A stretch of 49,201 bases of DNA, from the NCBI GenBank assembly GCA_903901225.1, contig CAIUQE010000002.1, positions 1 to 49,201 of the forward strand, written 5' to 3'. The notes beneath the pieces were generated by a model. That model had not been told where the DNA came from. It made no database searches and saw only the letters and a list, made by a program, of their open reading frames with translations. The stretch is from Candidatus Omnitrophota bacterium (lineage in GTDB: Bacteria > Omnitrophota > Gorgyraeia > Zapsychrales > Fredricksoniimonadaceae). Below, one piece after another: positions 8,825 to 48,199 of this stretch (within the stretch, counting starts at the first letter, position 1; the number at the start of each line of letters is the position of its first letter). A program made the translations under genes and the position numbers.

Positions 8825-9790
8825 CTATTTCAAAATACCCTGATCAACAATTTCTTTAGCCAAGATCTTATTTATTTTTTCCCCCTCTTTTAAATGCGTG
8901 TCATCAAGAAAGTCTTCAGGATCAGAAAATTCTTTGTTATCCCACAGGTATATGTATTTTATTTTATTATTATGAAGGTAATCCTTTAATTTGGAGAAAT
9001 ATTCCCGCATCATATGATTTGCCTGGACCGCTGTTGGAAGAATAACAACAAATAAACCCAGATCGTTGGCTTTAGTAAGCGCGACAATATCTGGCAAGTA
9101 TGACGTGTTAAGTGCTTTATCAAAATCATCTGGAGATCTTAAACTTAAAGTATAATTTGTATAACCCTTGTTATTCTCATAACTCATCCTTTGTTCCTTA
9201 AAAACATGCCCGACATCAAGTGACGGGTTTATTTTTTCAACAAAAAAATGAACAAAGAAATTAAAGAACCCCCTCCCTTTGAAGGAATACATTTTCCATT
9301 TCCTAAGTACGCCCTGCTCCCAGGATGTTTTCATTGCTCCTAATTCTTTCCTATAGTGAGATGGTTCCTCACGATTCCCAAGCTGGCTTAGCACCTCCTC
9401 TGACATCATGGTGTTGTTAGCCCTTGTGAGCGCATCTGTAGCACACATGATACCAACAACAAAATTCTTGTGCCGGGCACTCGCGACCTGATTTTCCAAT
9501 ACTAACTGCCAGTAATCCGCTCCAGTCTTAACCTGGAACCATGGCAAGATCTTGTATTTCTTATGAGTCAATGACTGCAGTTCCATTTCCAGGGAACCGA
9601 TACTGATCCTTTCCGCCGCCGAACTCCCGAGCAGGATCATATCCGGCTTTTCTTCATCGATCATCTTACGAAACTTATAGCTGATGTTCGTGGAAGACGA
9701 AAAACATATAAAAAAATAATTTACTGACACCACCAACAATATGGCCGCCACGATCCACAGCTTATTAAAACCTGAAATAAATGAAATCAT
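8825..9790 (-). CDS. SGNH-hydrolase-fold membrane protein, DltD-like
   Basis: The 321-residue protein has one N-terminal helix (about 9-30) and a periplasmic SGNH-like domain. GSSAAERI (55-62) fits the block with the nucleophilic serine, and DDTHL near the C-terminus (Asp296, His299) fits the DxxH dyad. In Dlt-type systems the SGNH partner works with the MBOAT enzyme to move an acyl or aminoacyl group onto an extracytoplasmic polymer. It overlaps the MBOAT gene by 26 nt and is last in its operon. Overall sequence is diverged, so DltD-like is a role inference. A+T is higher than in the neighbouring atp genes. Confidence 0.65.
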   Translation of the reverse strand: MISFISGFNKLWIVAAILLVVSVNYFFICFSSSTNISYKFRKMIDEEKPDMILLGSSAAERISIGSLEMELQSLTHKKYKILPWFQVKTGADYWQLVLENQVASARHKNFVVGIMCATDALTRANNTMMSEEVLSQLGNREEPSHYRKELGAMKTSWEQGVLRKWKMYSFKGRGFFNFFVHFFVEKINPSLDVGHVFKEQRMSYENNKGYTNYTLSLRSPDDFDKALNTSYLPDIVALTKANDLGLFVVILPTAVQANHMMREYFSKLKDYLHNNKIKYIYLWDNKEFSDPEDFLDDTHLKEGEKINKILAKEIVDQGILK

Positions 9791-11225
9791 TCTGATTTAT
9801 TCCTGCGAATATCATTAAAATCAAGCCGGCCAAAGTGTATAAAAAGAATCTCAAACCATAAAACTCATACAAATCCCATTGTTGCCTGTCTTGCAACCAC
9901 TTCCACGCGAGAGAACACAATAACGGGATCGAATAAAAAAGGAACCCGATCAACAGCACCGTGACCAGATCCCGGTCCGCGAACGACGCCAGTTGCACCC
10001 TCGTGTGCCCCTCAGGCCCGACACGAACGATCTCATCCTTAACCCGCATCCATAAAAACCCCAAGGAAGGTATCCTGATCAACAAAAATCCTATGGTCAC
10101 GACTATCCACGTCACAAAAATAGCCATAGCATTCGTAAACAGATTCTCCTTCCAAAACAAATCGAGGACCGGCTTTAAAACAAATTGATACCCGATAATA
10201 AGGACCGCATAATAGATCCCCCATACCAGGTACTTCCATTCAGCGCCATGCCAGACCCCGACACATCCCCAGGAAACCAAGACAGCGATCGCGTACCCCA
10301 ACCCCAACGGCAATCTTGCAAGCTTGAAAACCAAGGGCAAAAACAAATAATCTTTCATCCATGAAGTTAGCGAAATATGCCACCTGTTCCAAAAATCCAT
10401 AACATTCTTGGCCAGGAATGGCTTGTTAAAATTATTTATTAACTCGAACCCCAATAATCTTGAAGACCCGCGCGCAAAATCAGTATACGCAGAAAAATCG
10501 GCATACAACTGGATCCCGAAACCCAATCCACCAGCGAGCAATAACCCTATCGAAGGCTTTTCAAACCGAAAGACCATGTATAAAATTGCCGCTAAATTGT
10601 CTGCAATAACCAGTTTCTTTACCAATCCCCATACAATAAGATCGATCCCGCTCATAAAATGACGGCCATCAAAGACCCGTTCCTTCTGGATCTGAACAAG
10701 TAAGTTAGTTGCCCTTTGAATAGGGCCTGCAATAAGCTTCGGAAAGAAAGCTATGAACAAGCTAAGATCAATAAATGATCTGGTGGGTTGAATAACTCCG
10801 CGATAAACATCAAAGGTGTAACTCAAAAGTTCAAATGTAAAAAATGAAATGCCAAGAGGCAGGATAATATTCAAATGAAGATGGTTGGCGTTAATATGCA
10901 AGCTGGCGAAAATGGGATCAAGCGACTTGATGAAAAAATTCATGTATTTGAAATAACATAACAAGCCTAAATTCCAGATTATGTTGAAATACAAATATAA
11001 ATCCCTGTGCCCGCCATCCTTGGCCGGGCTCAAACGCAATGCCGTAAAATACACCACCCCTGCAGAACCAATGATAAGCGATAAAAAACGCCAGTCCCAT
11101 GTCGCGTAAAAAATATAACTACACAGGAGAAAAAAAACATTCTGAGACCGGTGGTTGAGCCGCCAATACACAAGAACAACAACAGCAAGAAAGACAAAGT
11201 AACTTAATTGCGGAAAAATGATCAT
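9765..11225 (-). CDS. MBOAT acyltransferase (DltB/AlgI family)
   Basis: Polytopic membrane O-acyltransferase of 486 residues with about 11 hydrophobic segments. The family hallmarks are present: FFPKLIAGPIQR (160-171), DFWNRWHISLTSWMKDYLFLPL around His283, and GVWHGAEW with the invariant His326. Such enzymes pass an acyl group across the membrane from a carrier protein (DltB) or similar donor to a polysaccharide. The start overlaps the ligase stop as ATGA. Neighbouring carrier protein and ligase point to a DltB-like role rather than alginate acetylation. Confidence 0.9.
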   Translation of the reverse strand: MIIFPQLSYFVFLAVVVLVYWRLNHRSQNVFFLLCSYIFYATWDWRFLSLIIGSAGVVYFTALRLSPAKDGGHRDLYLYFNIIWNLGLLCYFKYMNFFIKSLDPIFASLHINANHLHLNIILPLGISFFTFELLSYTFDVYRGVIQPTRSFIDLSLFIAFFPKLIAGPIQRATNLLVQIQKERVFDGRHFMSGIDLIVWGLVKKLVIADNLAAILYMVFRFEKPSIGLLLAGGLGFGIQLYADFSAYTDFARGSSRLLGFELINNFNKPFLAKNVMDFWNRWHISLTSWMKDYLFLPLVFKLARLPLGLGYAIAVLVSWGCVGVWHGAEWKYLVWGIYYAVLIIGYQFVLKPVLDLFWKENLFTNAMAIFVTWIVVTIGFLLIRIPSLGFLWMRVKDEIVRVGPEGHTRVQLASFADRDLVTVLLIGFLFYSIPLLCSLAWKWLQDRQQWDLYEFYGLRFFLYTLAGLILMIFAGINQNDFIYFRF

Positions 11226-13441
11226 TCTCTGGTATTCCCCATGAACCAGGGCTTTTCAGAAGTGCCCGATTTGATCGAATGGATATAGATCGTGGGAAGG
11301 GGGGGGCTGATGATCCGATAGGCCGGGTCGTTGTGCGTAAAAAAAACATTCCCGACACCGTACCGGGCCACAACATCACGTTCCGCGCTCATGACTGCAA
11401 AATACTTCCTTGCCCCTGCTTCAACGTCTTGATGCATGCCCAGCCCTTTAGCCTGTTTCATGAACCGATCTTTCAAAGGGAAACACGCCCAAGCCTGTTG
11501 AAATTCCTGCGTGTCTAATTCTCGGAAAACATCATCAAGAACAAGCCCATGCCCGGACCAAATATCGCTTAAATAAACACATTCAAAATCCCTCTTTCGA
11601 CACTCATTTATGATCGCATTAAAATAATTTCTCGCTGTCGCCTCCGGGACAAGGTTGCATCGCCCGTGGATGTCAGCCAGAATCAATCGGATCCTGGCGA
11701 CCGGCTTGCCTGCGGCCTTGTTGATCTCATCCAGAAGCTTGCGTAAATTATCCAATACAGCCCCGTCATTCTCGTTGGCATCCTGCCGATAACCAACGCC
11801 CCAGAACCCCAAAAGATAAAAATGTTCACGGCTCAACAAAGCCGATTGAAGGATATCGACGATCGCATTAACATCCGGCGTTTTCGCCTTTCTGTAACGC
11901 GCCTTATCCAAAACCGCAACGATCTCGCGGCTTGTCTGACCTGTGACATATTCCTTGAGTTTGCGTAAATTAACCTTACCGACATCATTCTTGGGGAAAC
12001 ACCCGCAAAAAATAAATTCATCCGGGAAGTTGTGCTGTGACAATTTCTCTCGGGAGAAATCCAACACATGCTGCTCGGGATTATCAGCGCCCTCCTTCAA
12101 AATACACGCAGAAACAACCTTCTCCCCCAATATTTCGTCAGGCACGCCGAACGTGCACGACTCAGCAACAAAAGAACAACGCCCAATGACCACATCAATA
12201 TCCTCGGGGACGATCAACTGCCCCTTTCGCTTGATGATATTCTTGATCCTCCCGACGATAACAAGCTGTCCGTCTTGATCGATCAAGCCGACATCGCCGG
12301 TCCTGAGCCATCCATCCATAAAAACAGCTCTTGTTGCTTCAGCATTTCCCCAATACCCCTTCATGACAATATCGCCCTTAACGAGAACTTCACCACAACC
12401 CGGCGGCATGGCGTCTGAAAGGGAGAGCATGGCGGGATCAACGCGGAGCTCACAGCCAACAGGTATCCCTGCCGTATCATAGCGCTTCCGGGCATCCCGT
12501 GGCGTCATCGTCACCCACGTTGTCGTTTCCGTAAGACCATATCCCTGATAACATGGGACATGGAAACGATCTTCAAAATCCCTCCAAATGTTCGGTTTAA
12601 GCTGTGCTGTGCCAACAAGCGCATATTGCACTGAAGTAATATCTTTGCCCGCGCCCTCCGGATACAACGCAAGCAACGACGCCATAATTGATGGCGTTAC
12701 GCTAAGGACCTGTATCCTGTTATGCTCAACAATATTCCAAAGATTCCGGGCCAATATAAAACCGTAAACATCATCAATAAAAATATGCGCCTCGGCGAGA
12801 ATACACGCCAGCCCGGTGATCATCGGCGCATTGATCTGATAAAAAGGCAACATCGACAAAAATCTCTGCCCTTCTTTATAATCGTAAAATGAAGACAACT
12901 GCAGGGCCATCGCATAAAGATTCTTGTACGTCAACCCTACCCCCTTACTGTTGGTAGTTGTCCCTGATGTATAGATAATAAGCGCAACTCTCCCGTCAAT
13001 GTCTTCCTTATCAAAAAAGTCTTTTGAAAAACCATCCCCTCTGCCGCTTGCCAGACATAGCATATTCTTGCCATCCACGGGAACAACTTCAAAACCGCTC
13101 AAAATGCCCTTCAAATCTGCTTGGATTTCATCATAAAAAATAATTTTTGGCGCCAGCTGCTTCAAAATATTATTCAACTCATCAACATGCATATGAGGAT
13201 TCAGCGGCACAAGGGCGGCTTTCGTGGCCGCGCAGGCAAAGAACAAAGGAAAGAAAAATCCGGAATTAACGGTAAAATAAACAATTTTATCGCCTGATGC
13301 CACTGACCTGTTCCTGAGGAAAGATGCCAGGCTCGCACTGGCGTGATGCAGGTCGCCATAACTATAACTTCTTGCATTTTTCAGATCTGAAAGAAAAGTT
13401 CGATGCCCCGAGGGATGGCGTAAGAAGGGAAACTGGTTCAT
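11222..13441 (-). CDS. AMP-forming ligase with an unrecognised C-terminal domain
   Basis: Residues 1-500 form an ANL adenylation enzyme: YTSGTTTNSKG (157-167), YGLTETT (301-307), TGD (381-383), GRIK (397-400) and the catalytic lysine at about 489 in NDVGKVN. It probably activates a carboxylate as AMP ester and loads it on the adjacent carrier protein, like DltA; the substrate cannot be read. Residues from about 510 to 739 form a separate domain, with LLGFWGVGYR (543-552), LILADIHG (586-593) and YLSDIW (623-628), that I do not recognise. DltA has only about 500 residues, so the extra 230 are notable. The start overlaps the carrier gene as ATGA. Confidence 0.85.
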   Translation of the reverse strand: MNQFPFLRHPSGHRTFLSDLKNARSYSYGDLHHASASLASFLRNRSVASGDKIVYFTVNSGFFFPLFFACAATKAALVPLNPHMHVDELNNILKQLAPKIIFYDEIQADLKGILSGFEVVPVDGKNMLCLASGRGDGFSKDFFDKEDIDGRVALIIYTSGTTTNSKGVGLTYKNLYAMALQLSSFYDYKEGQRFLSMLPFYQINAPMITGLACILAEAHIFIDDVYGFILARNLWNIVEHNRIQVLSVTPSIMASLLALYPEGAGKDITSVQYALVGTAQLKPNIWRDFEDRFHVPCYQGYGLTETTTWVTMTPRDARKRYDTAGIPVGCELRVDPAMLSLSDAMPPGCGEVLVKGDIVMKGYWGNAEATRAVFMDGWLRTGDVGLIDQDGQLVIVGRIKNIIKRKGQLIVPEDIDVVIGRCSFVAESCTFGVPDEILGEKVVSACILKEGADNPEQHVLDFSREKLSQHNFPDEFIFCGCFPKNDVGKVNLRKLKEYVTGQTSREIVAVLDKARYRKAKTPDVNAIVDILQSALLSREHFYLLGFWGVGYRQDANENDGAVLDNLRKLLDEINKAAGKPVARIRLILADIHGRCNLVPEATARNYFNAIINECRKRDFECVYLSDIWSGHGLVLDDVFRELDTQEFQQAWACFPLKDRFMKQAKGLGMHQDVEAGARKYFAVMSAERDVVARYGVGNVFFTHNDPAYRIISPPLPTIYIHSIKSGTSEKPWFMGNTRE

Positions 13442-13689
13442 TTTTCACCCTGTCTGCGTGTGACAAAATAATCAAGCTTCTCTAAGGAATTGATCCTTTC
13501 ATTGGCCAGATCTGCGACATCGATGGTGATCTTGAATTCAGACTCTATCAAAGTAATGACTTTGATCAATTCGAATGAATCAAATATGTTTTTTTTAACG
13601 AAATCCTCTCCATCAGCGAGCTTTTGTATCAAGCGCGCCTTACTCTTGAAATTCTTCACCAATATTTCCCGGACTTTTTCTTTTACCAT
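13438..13689 (-). CDS. Acyl/peptidyl carrier protein (DltC-like)
   Basis: Eighty-three residues with the carrier four-helix pattern. FDSFELIKVITLIESEF carries the phosphopantetheine-bearing serine (Ser38) in the DSxE-type context. It precedes an adenylating enzyme, MBOAT and SGNH genes, so it is the likely shuttle for the activated group. ATG 13689 has no ribosome site of its own. It overlaps the stop of a 26-codon upstream frame, suggesting coupled translation. Confidence 0.85.
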   Translation of the reverse strand: MVKEKVREILVKNFKSKARLIQKLADGEDFVKKNIFDSFELIKVITLIESEFKITIDVADLANERINSLEKLDYFVTRRQGEK

Positions 13690-46354: not shown

Positions 46355-47380
46355 TTATTTATCCTCTTTCAACGAACGCACAAGCTCCTCGGGCAACACC
46401 GCGGCCGCGCCGATCTTGGCCACCACGACACCCGCGGCATGATTGGCAATATCCGCGGCCTGGCGCTTCGTGGCCCCCGAGGCAATGGCCAGCGCGAACA
46501 CGGAGATCACCGTATCGCCCGCGCCCGAAACATCGAACACTTCACGCGCCTTCGTCGGGATATGATGATGCGGCTTGCCGGCCTCGAACAGGCACATGCC
46601 GTCTTCGCCGAGCGTCACCAACAGCGACTCGATCCCCAGATATTTCAACAGGCCTTCACCGGCCTCGATGATCACTTTCATGCTGTTCAGCTTCGTCGAT
46701 CCGATACCAAGCCCGCGACGGGTATCCGGCTCCAGGCTTTTGAGCGCGTTCTCGGTCTCGGTACGGTTGGGCGTGATCGACGTCACCGGGCCGTAAAATT
46801 TCAGGTGCTCGACCTTGGGGTCGACGATCACAGGGATATGTTTCTGGCGGCACATGGCCGTGATATCCGCCACCAGCGCGGCCTGCACCACCCCTTTGCC
46901 GTAATCGGAAATGATGATGGCATCAAAATGATGGAAATTCCTTTTGATGAAAGGCGCGACAGTCTTGCGGTAAAAAAGATTGTCCGGATCGTCGGAAACA
47001 GTCTCGCGGTCAATACGCACCACCTGCTGGCGATGGGCAATGATGCGGGTTTTGAGGATGGTCTCCACCCGCTTGTCGGTCAGGACGCCTTCCGTGCGGA
47101 TCTGACGCTCGGCAAGGACCTTCTTCAAAAGATCCCCTTCCTTGTCGTCGCCCACCCGCCCGACCAGCGTGACCTTCGCGCCCAGGCTGCTCAAATTATT
47201 CGCCACGTTCGCCGCGCCACCCGGCGTGTGGAACAGCTGTTCCTGCAGGACCACGGGCACAGGGGCTTCCGGCGAAATGCGGCTGACGGAGCCTTTGATA
47301 TACTGGTCAAGGATAAGATCCCCGATAACAAGGACATGCTTCCTGCTGAAAGCATTCAGTATCCCCGCGTATTTGTGCAT
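46355..47380 (-). CDS. D-beta-heptose 7-phosphate kinase (HldE/RfaE1 kinase domain)
   Basis: PfkB-family kinase of 341 residues making heptose-1,7-bisphosphate for the LPS core. TPGGAANVANNLSSLGA and the anion hole DVSGAGDTVISVFALA are conserved. The adenylyltransferase half found in E. coli HldE is absent, so that activity must be a separate gene elsewhere. First gene of the Kdo/heptose/Lpt operon, directly behind the promoter. Confidence 0.93.
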   Translation of the reverse strand: MHKYAGILNAFSRKHVLVIGDLILDQYIKGSVSRISPEAPVPVVLQEQLFHTPGGAANVANNLSSLGAKVTLVGRVGDDKEGDLLKKVLAERQIRTEGVLTDKRVETILKTRIIAHRQQVVRIDRETVSDDPDNLFYRKTVAPFIKRNFHHFDAIIISDYGKGVVQAALVADITAMCRQKHIPVIVDPKVEHLKFYGPVTSITPNRTETENALKSLEPDTRRGLGIGSTKLNSMKVIIEAGEGLLKYLGIESLLVTLGEDGMCLFEAGKPHHHIPTKAREVFDVSGAGDTVISVFALAIASGATKRQAADIANHAAGVVVAKIGAAAVLPEELVRSLKEDK

Positions 47381-47421
47381 AAACCCTCGGTTAATAATAT
47401 ATTAGACTTATAGGAGCCGTT

Positions 47422-47450
47422 ATACTAACACGCTTCATTTATGGTGTCAA
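47422..47450 (-). promoter_or_regulatory. Promoter of the Kdo/Lpt operon
   Basis: Perfect TTGACA (plus 47445-47450), a 17-nt spacer and TAGTAT (plus 47422-47427), 42 nt before ATG 47380. Confidence 0.75.
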
Positions 47451-47463
47451 CGAGGAGAGGGGC

Positions 47464-47530
47464 AATCCAAAGGACATGCATAACAGGGGCACATGTACCA
47501 AAGCCGTCCTTTGGATTTGGCACGTGCCCC
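47464..47530. repeat. Interlocked inverted repeats (REP-like)
   Basis: A perfect 12-bp repeat, AATCCAAAGGAC (47464-47475) with GTCCTTTGGATT (47506-47517), interlocks with GGGGCACATG (47486-47495) against its near-complement at 47521-47530 (one mismatch). The arms alternate, so the two stems would form a pseudoknot or be mutually exclusive. The location between the toxin-antitoxin stop and the hldE promoter suits a dispersed palindromic element. Confidence 0.7.
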
Positions 47531-47556
47531 CCGCTTTGAATCTCTATTGCATTCGA

Positions 47557-47862
47557 TCAAACCAAGGCTGCCACTTGATCAAAGCTTTCATCAGGGATCA
47601 ACATGACATGACAACGAACGGCCTTCGCGGCCTTAATAATGGAAGAAATCTTCGGATCATGGGCGGTGCTCTCGGTCCTGGCCACATGAGGTTGAAGAAC
47701 TTTCATTTTCAAAGCAAGATCACGTTGAGAAAGACTTCTCCTTCTGCGCATCACGGCCAGCTGGGTCGATAACGGCAATTCAGCAAAAACTTTTGCATGA
47801 GCTTTCGCCGCCGCTGGGTTTGTAGCCAATATTTCCTGTAAATGTTTGTCAAATGTTTTCAT
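47557..47862 (-). CDS. higA: HigA-type antitoxin
   Basis: HTH protein of 101 residues with an XRE helix-turn-helix at about 38-90 (MRRRRSLSQRDLALKMKVLQPHVARTES). It overlaps the toxin gene by 14 nt and follows it, the toxin-first order of HigBA. It should neutralise HigB and repress the operon through the palindrome upstream of higB. Confidence 0.85.
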   Translation of the reverse strand: MKTFDKHLQEILATNPAAAKAHAKVFAELPLSTQLAVMRRRRSLSQRDLALKMKVLQPHVARTESTAHDPKISSIIKAAKAVRCHVMLIPDESFDQVAALV

Positions 47863-48199
47863 TTTTCAATACCTCCTTAAATCTCTTCTTTGCTAAAACC
47901 AAATCGTCTTTAGGCGTCTTGGCACTTTTCTTCTCAATACTATGTAAAAGCCAGGCATTGCCTTGATGCACGGCAAAGAATATTCGATATTGAATACCGT
48001 TATACAGCCGTTTTAACTCCCAGATCTTATCCCCTAGCGGTCGAACTGTGATCTGCTGCGATCTGAGCCCTTCGGCCCCCAATACTTCAAGATCAACAGC
48101 TAGACGAGCAAATGCTTCCGGTCGTTCCCTTACCAAAGAAATAAGGTATTCTTTTACAGGACCGCTGGTGCCTTCTGGATAATAAATGATATCAATCAT
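47849..48199 (-). CDS. higB: HigB/RelE-superfamily toxin
   Basis: The 116-residue phage Gp49/HigB-like protein contains DKIWELKRLYNGIQYRIFFAVHQGNAWLLHSIEKKSAKTPKD, typical of ribosome-dependent mRNA interferases. ATG 48199 (MIDIIYYPEG) is preferred because the longer frame to 48220 would start inside the operator. It is co-translated with higA. Target and activity are inferred from family. Confidence 0.85.
   Translation of the reverse strand: MIDIIYYPEGTSGPVKEYLISLVRERPEAFARLAVDLEVLGAEGLRSQQITVRPLGDKIWELKRLYNGIQYRIFFAVHQGNAWLLHSIEKKSAKTPKDDLVLAKKRFKEVLKNENI

What the first reader, a model, noticed from the sequence alone, without database searches (positions are those of the whole stretch)
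11222..11912. Unknown domain of about 230 residues fused to the adenylating enzyme
The ligase has normal A3-A10 motifs and a catalytic lysine near 489. It then continues from about 510 to 739 with a second domain containing LLGFWGVGYR, LILADIHG and YLSDIW. DltA proteins stop near residue 500. A fusion within a coupled operon suggests that the domain makes, modifies or hands over the activated group. I do not recognise it.
Basis: partly seen in the sequence, partly recalled or inferred. Interest (0 to 1): 0.75.

Follow-up and report, generated by a model that had tools for sequence, protein, structure and literature searches.

The report
Ligase fused to isonitrile-synthase-like domain
In an uncultured bacterium, an enzyme that activates acids carries an extra domain folded like isonitrile synthases, and it sits in a gene cluster that looks built to attach an acid to the cell surface, which hints at an unusual surface decoration.

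Summary
The 739-residue protein (11222-13441, minus strand) has a complete adenylating unit (A3-A10, Lys489), then about 240 residues with no Pfam, NCBIfam or PDB sequence match. The fusion is not an assembly artefact: two other Omnitrophota species, in another class, carry it at 56-60% identity with the same ACP-fusion-MBOAT order. The extra domain is not a new fold. Its model best matches isonitrile synthases PIsnA and PvcA (Foldseek E 5.7e-6; Z 14.8/14.6, next family 11.3). Its profile ranks a DIT1_PvcA domain first and a Microvirga ICS-like protein second of 325 targets. Several residues typical of canonical synthases are replaced, so isonitrile chemistry is unproven and isonitrile-synthase membership is not claimed. 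The adenylating part is not DltA-like; it resembles acyl-CoA/acyl-acid ligases. The rest is Dlt-like: carrier protein, DltB-like MBOAT ending in the FxYxxF acyl-shuttle motif, and a putative SGNH protein. A cousin operon in another species lacks the extra domain. Best reading: the domain makes or modifies, probably at the amino group of an amino acid, the acid that the ligase loads on the ACP for transfer to an envelope polymer. Ligase-ICS fusions were reported only in fungi (CrmA).

The parts
11222..13441 (-). Fusion protein, 739 aa: acyl-adenylating ligase plus C-terminal ICS-fold domain
   Evidence: full-length homologues in G119 and G072
11954..13441 (-). Adenylating part, residues 1-496: A3 157-167, A4 198-206, A5 300-306, A8 397-416, A10 483-490 with Lys489; nearest solved relatives FadD13 and oxalyl-/malonyl-CoA synthetases; no Asp in the A4 stretch LPFY[QH]INAP
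11225..11953 (-). C-terminal domain, residues 497-739: isonitrile-synthase (DIT1_PvcA) fold, divergent
   Evidence: weak repeat
13438..13689 (-). Carrier protein, 83 aa; invariant F-DS38-F (probable phosphopantetheine Ser38); 4-bp ATGA overlap with the ligase start
9765..11225 (-). DltB-like MBOAT acyltransferase, 486 aa, His326 in WHG; 4-bp ATGA overlap with the ligase stop
9768..9785 (-). C-terminal FIYFRF, residues 481-486, fits the FxYxxF acyl-shuttle motif (Tyr483)
   Evidence: motif defined in PMC12148441
8825..9790 (-). Putative SGNH/DltD-like membrane-anchored protein, 321 aa: invariant Ser57 in LLG[ST]S and D296-x-x-H299; overlaps the MBOAT end
   Evidence: no family or PDB match, so motif-based only

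Best explanation
The extra domain is a divergent member of the isonitrile-synthase (PvcA/IsnA/DIT1) fold superfamily. It is fused to an acyl-adenylating ligase in a Dlt-like envelope-acylation operon. Most likely it builds or modifies the carboxylic acid that the neighbouring ligase activates. By analogy with its relatives it would act on the alpha-amino group of an amino acid, adding one carbon to give an isonitrile or the related N-formyl acid. The ligase then adenylates that acid and loads it on Ser38 of the small carrier protein. The MBOAT moves the acyl group across the membrane to Tyr483 of its own C-terminal FxYxxF tail, and the SGNH-like protein (Ser57) transfers it to an envelope polymer. 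Supported by computation: the fusion, its recurrence, the fold relationship, the operon order and coupling, the MBOAT class and the shuttle motif. Inferred: the substrate, the product, isonitrile or formyl chemistry, and the acceptor.
For: Foldseek's four best hits of the model are PIsnA (E 5.7e-6 to 4.5e-5, prob 1.00); VIA Z 14.8 PIsnA and 14.6 PvcA against 11.3 for the next family, 217-222 residues aligned. A poorer model of an orthologue again put PIsnA/PvcA in Foldseek's first five places. HH comparison with a DIT1_PvcA domain of another Omnitrophota: 232 columns, E 5.2e-6, rank 1 of 325 targets, a Microvirga ICS-like protein rank 2, best shuffle 27.9 against 44.9 and 36.2. That bridge domain is over the PF05141 cut-off. 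Fusion and gene order kept in three genomes. The A4 stretch lacks an Asp, and the nearest relatives are acyl ligases, which fits an acid without a free alpha-amine. MBOAT resembles DltB at 4e-25; FIYF[RK]F at its end. A cousin operon has carrier, ligase without the domain, MBOAT and an SGNH-like protein plus an ABC importer, fitting the domain as supplier of the acid.
Against: The domain scores below Pfam reporting for DIT1_PvcA. Residues conserved in the canonical synthases examined are replaced: Lys of FPxK, the second Lys, and His of P[WY]H, although the alignment is uncertain there. The best model is only moderate (pLDDT 65, residues 203-243 below 50) and the orthologue's is low (47.8), with VIA Z only 6.2 there. 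No active-site paper was available to check catalytic residues. Only three members, all from metagenome-type assemblies. No SGNH gene lies within the 16.7 kb around the G119 copy.
Confidence: 0.5

Rival explanations
1. The domain keeps the isonitrile-synthase fold but has lost or changed the chemistry: it makes a different bond on an amine or acid, or only binds the substrate or carrier protein, and the group attached is an ordinary acid.
For: Replacement of residues conserved in canonical synthases; no Pfam DIT1_PvcA score. DIT1 itself is reported not to be an isocyanide synthase but to give formyl tyrosine (PMC7345447).
Against: Dense conservation across three species of two classes, including W51-G-V-G, E61, D63, D94, N100 and THND-type residues, argues against decay. 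Alignment at these positions is not secure.
Confidence: 0.35
2. The domain is a cyclodipeptide-synthase- or tRNA-synthetase-like HUP-type domain that uses aminoacyl-tRNA or ATP.
For: TyrRS structures reach Z about 10-11 and a CDPS appears in the Foldseek list; related nucleotide-binding folds.
Against: ICS entries stand above them in both Foldseek searches and by 3 Z units in the better model. No HIGH or KMSKS motif and no CDPS-type serine after the first strand (sequence; motifs from own knowledge). Profile evidence points to DIT1_PvcA.
Confidence: 0.08
3. A wholly new fold or an assembly artefact.
For: No sequence-library match; metagenome assemblies.
Against: Same fusion in two independent assemblies; fold and profile matches.
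Confidence: 0.05

Closest known systems
PvcA / IsnA / PIsnA isonitrile synthases (PF05141 DIT1_PvcA)
   Same: Fold (Z about 14.6-14.8); profile similarity to a DIT1_PvcA domain over its whole length and to part of a Microvirga ICS-like protein; acidic positions after the first strand and an Asp after the second strand
   Different: Below the Pfam threshold; canonical FPxK lysine and P[WY]H histidine replaced; fused to a ligase; no dioxygenase partner seen in the loci
CrmA, fungal ICS-NRPS-like enzyme
   Same: ICS domain and adenylating domain in one protein, with a carrier; makes a valine isocyanide (PMC9381783)
   Different: [quoted passage not shown] feeds secondary-metabolite pathways; no MBOAT/SGNH partners reported there
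Dlt D-alanylation system (DltABCD, DltX)
   Same: Separate carrier protein, ligase, DltB-like MBOAT and SGNH-like protein in one operon; FxYxxF shuttle motif (PMC12148441)
   Different: Ligase is not DltA-like and carries the extra domain; the shuttle motif is at the MBOAT end, as in PatA, rather than on DltX; SGNH protein matches no DltD model
Yeast DIT1
   Same: DIT1_PvcA superfamily member whose product ends in a cell wall (PMC7345447)
   Different: Stand-alone, eukaryotic; no ligase or carrier protein

Membership tests
Isonitrile synthase (PvcA/IsnA) | ICS fold | tested here: met
   (predicted model, pLDDT 65); weaker repeat
Isonitrile synthase (PvcA/IsnA) | Score over Pfam PF05141 DIT1_PvcA cut-off | tested here: not met
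   (no match at E<=10)
Isonitrile synthase (PvcA/IsnA) | Residues conserved in canonical members (FPxK Lys, D..E, P[WY]H) | tested here: not met
   Lys and His replaced, acidic pair partly kept; alignment uncertain
Isonitrile synthase (PvcA/IsnA) | Converts an amino acid plus ribulose-5-phosphate to an isonitrile | not testable with these tools
   needs biochemistry
DIT1_PvcA superfamily (homology only) | Profile similarity above background | tested here: met
   ranks 1 and 2 of 325 targets are DIT1_PvcA/ICS-like
Dlt-type MBOAT-SGNH acylation system | Carrier protein and ligase encoded with MBOAT | tested here: met
   4-bp overlaps
Dlt-type MBOAT-SGNH acylation system | DltB-like MBOAT with catalytic His and FxYxxF acyl shuttle | tested here: met
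   (motif on the MBOAT end rather than on DltX)
Dlt-type MBOAT-SGNH acylation system | SGNH partner | tested here: inconclusive
   motifs only, no family match; none within the G119 locus
DltA (D-alanine ligase) | DltA-type adenylating enzyme | tested here: not met
   Best models are acyl-CoA ligases; nearest solved FadD13, no DltA in the 60 shown at E<=1e-20; no A4 Asp
Cyclodipeptide synthase | CDPS fold with catalytic Ser | tested here: inconclusive
   CDPS only low in Foldseek lists; no serine in GFWGVG

The most novel reading that the evidence does not exclude
A bacterial envelope-acylation pathway that decorates a surface polymer with an isonitrile- or formamide-bearing amino acid, made in situ by an isonitrile-synthase domain fused to the loading ligase: a metal-binding or chemically reactive cell coat.
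Probability: 0.25. Interest if true: 0.85.

Novelty: new variant of a known kind. Interest (0 to 1): 0.58.

Why it matters
Known ICS proteins in bacteria were described in two architectures, stand-alone or with a dioxygenase, and ligase-ICS fusions only in fungi (PMC5974471). Carrier-fed MBOAT/SGNH acylation is known for D-alanine; the carrier protein was described as absent from the other MBOAT/SGNH pathways (PMC12148441). Joining the two would mean a new class of surface modification with unusual chemistry, and it points to a divergent ICS-like subgroup in Omnitrophota that Pfam misses.

Tried and rejected
Sequence-only searches gave nothing: Pfam, NCBIfam, PDB sequences, plasmids, phages, viral contigs, first genome scan. 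The weak bpMoxR Pfam match (E 0.06-0.2) and the endoglucanase match (E 0.057) were taken as chance. Weak matches at E 0.006-0.1 were not followed and read as chance. Direct HH of the domain against an alignment of canonical ICS sequences was weak (prob 4; 54 when the bridge domain is added), so the sequence link rests on the bridge domain and the Microvirga protein. An orthologue was modelled to repeat the fold match; the model was poor (pLDDT 48) though ICS entries still came first in Foldseek. The PvcA structure paper was not held and no paper mentioning PIsnA was found, so catalytic residues could not be checked. Rejected: DltA identity of the ligase; assembly artefact.

Full report
The reading frame is real and as described. 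On the minus strand, 11222-13441 encodes 739 residues. PF00501 covers residues 12-363 and PF13193 covers 414-488. A3, A5, A7, A8 and A10 are in place, with Lys489 in the A10 motif. Beyond residue about 496 no Pfam, NCBIfam or PDB sequence matches.

The fusion recurs. Searching 384 Omnitrophota genomes gave two full-length relatives (G119, G072), 55-59% identical over the domain in that search, both in another class; none in the other genomes of the window's own genus or family that were searched. A second genome-collection scan returned the same two assemblies (PLLJ01000021, CAIOAT010000013), 56-60% identical. That scan needs exact short peptides, so three genomes is a lower bound. Close relatives of the ligase at E <= 1e-60 were found only as this fusion, in 145 genomes searched.

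The fold. An AlphaFold2 model from three sequences (mean pLDDT 65, pTM 0.68; residues 203-243 below 50) matched PIsnA, an isonitrile synthase, in Foldseek's first four places (E 5.7e-6 to 4.5e-5), with tyrosyl-tRNA synthetases next at 3.8e-4. VIA-align 2 gave Z 14.8 for PIsnA and 14.6 for PvcA with 217-222 residues aligned, against 11.3 for the best TyrRS. A model of an orthologue was poor (pLDDT 47.8); Foldseek still put PIsnA and PvcA in the first five places, but only at E 1e-3 to 8e-3, and VIA gave Z 6.2, not above its background.

Sequence support came through a bridge. An Omnitrophota genome (G144) has an open frame of 37,731 aa holding a domain over the PF05141 cut-off. HH comparison of the three-row profile with that single domain aligned 232 columns at E 5.2e-6. 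In a control of 325 targets (the bridge domain and seven ICS or ICS-like sequences, 200 shuffles and the reverse of the bridge domain, and background ORFs from the window and fetched loci) the bridge domain ranked first (score 44.9) and a Microvirga ICS-like protein second (36.2); the best shuffle scored 27.9. Canonical ICS sequences taken singly did not stand out.

Membership is not claimed. In the joint alignment the Lys of FPxK, a second Lys and the His of P[WY]H, conserved in nearly all the ICS sequences used, are replaced in the fusion domain; the acidic pair is partly kept and an Asp after the second strand is kept. The alignment is uncertain at this distance, and no active-site study could be read. 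So: homologous fold, divergent, chemistry open.

The ligase part is not DltA. Its best NCBIfam models are acyl-CoA ligases, its nearest solved relatives FadD13 and oxalyl-CoA synthetase, and its A4 stretch reads LPFY[QH]INAP with no Asp. In amino-acid-activating domains an Asp there binds the alpha-amine (own knowledge), so an acid without a free alpha-amine is the likelier substrate. An isonitrile or N-formyl amino acid would fit; so would an ordinary acid.

The operon is Dlt-like. Carrier protein, fusion and MBOAT are joined by two 4-bp ATGA overlaps, and the SGNH-like gene overlaps the MBOAT end. The carrier protein has invariant DSF with Ser38. The MBOAT matches solved DltB at 4e-25, keeps WHG, and ends in FIYFRF; the G119 copy ends in FIYFKF, and the G072 copy has the same tail in a shifted frame. 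This fits the FxYxxF acyl-shuttle motif described for MBOAT-SGNH systems (PMC12148441). The SGNH-like protein has invariant Ser57 and DxxH but no family or PDB match, and no such gene was seen in the 16.7 kb around the G119 copy.

A cousin operon in G133 has a carrier-like gene, an ABC transporter, a 511-aa ligase without the extra domain (25% identical), an MBOAT ending FIYFRI and a protein with GSS and DATHF motifs. There the acid may be imported, whereas here the fused domain may supply it; this is inference. Third-position GC of the four genes is 0.44-0.52 against 0.67-0.78 in flanking atp, glnK and amtB genes, which with the patchy distribution suggests horizontal transfer.

Compared with the literature: ICS proteins in bacteria were described as stand-alone or fused to a dioxygenase, and ICS-NRPS-like fusions as found only in fungi (PMC5974471); CrmA combines ICS, adenylation, thiolation and transferase domains (PMC9381783). 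DIT1 gives formyl tyrosine for a spore wall (PMC7345447). A bacterial ligase-ICS-fold fusion in an acylation operon is not described in the papers I read. I rate it a new variant of a known kind.

Noticed in passing
L020 / L031 (G144:C3 around 47173-48003, minus strand): A DIT1_PvcA domain lies inside an open frame of 37,731 aa in another Omnitrophota genome. Giant ORFs are known in this phylum with few annotated domains (PMC10066038).
   Followed up: partly
L049 (G133:C223:21500-29732): Cousin operon without the extra domain: carrier-like gene, ABC transporter genes, ligase, MBOAT ending FIYFRI, and a putative SGNH protein.
   Followed up: partly
L023 and L025 (Microvirga and Agrobacterium plasmids): ICS-like genes next to ROK-family and TRAP-transporter genes, two of them in Microvirga either side of the ROK gene; they read FP[FY]KxPxPxKT and look like sugar-metabolism context.
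   Followed up: no
L017 10051-10203 and 3260-4599: The G072 MBOAT is cut short by a frameshift while its FIYFKF tail is present in another frame; pieces of a third SGNH-like gene lie upstream of two tandem copies.
   Followed up: no
L016 5335-6183: A PP-loop (YSGGVDSTV) protein lies just upstream of the carrier protein gene in the G119 copy.
   Followed up: no
window 8825-13689: Third-position GC 0.44-0.52 against 0.67-0.78 in the flanking atp and amtB/glnK genes: looks horizontally acquired.
   Followed up: partly
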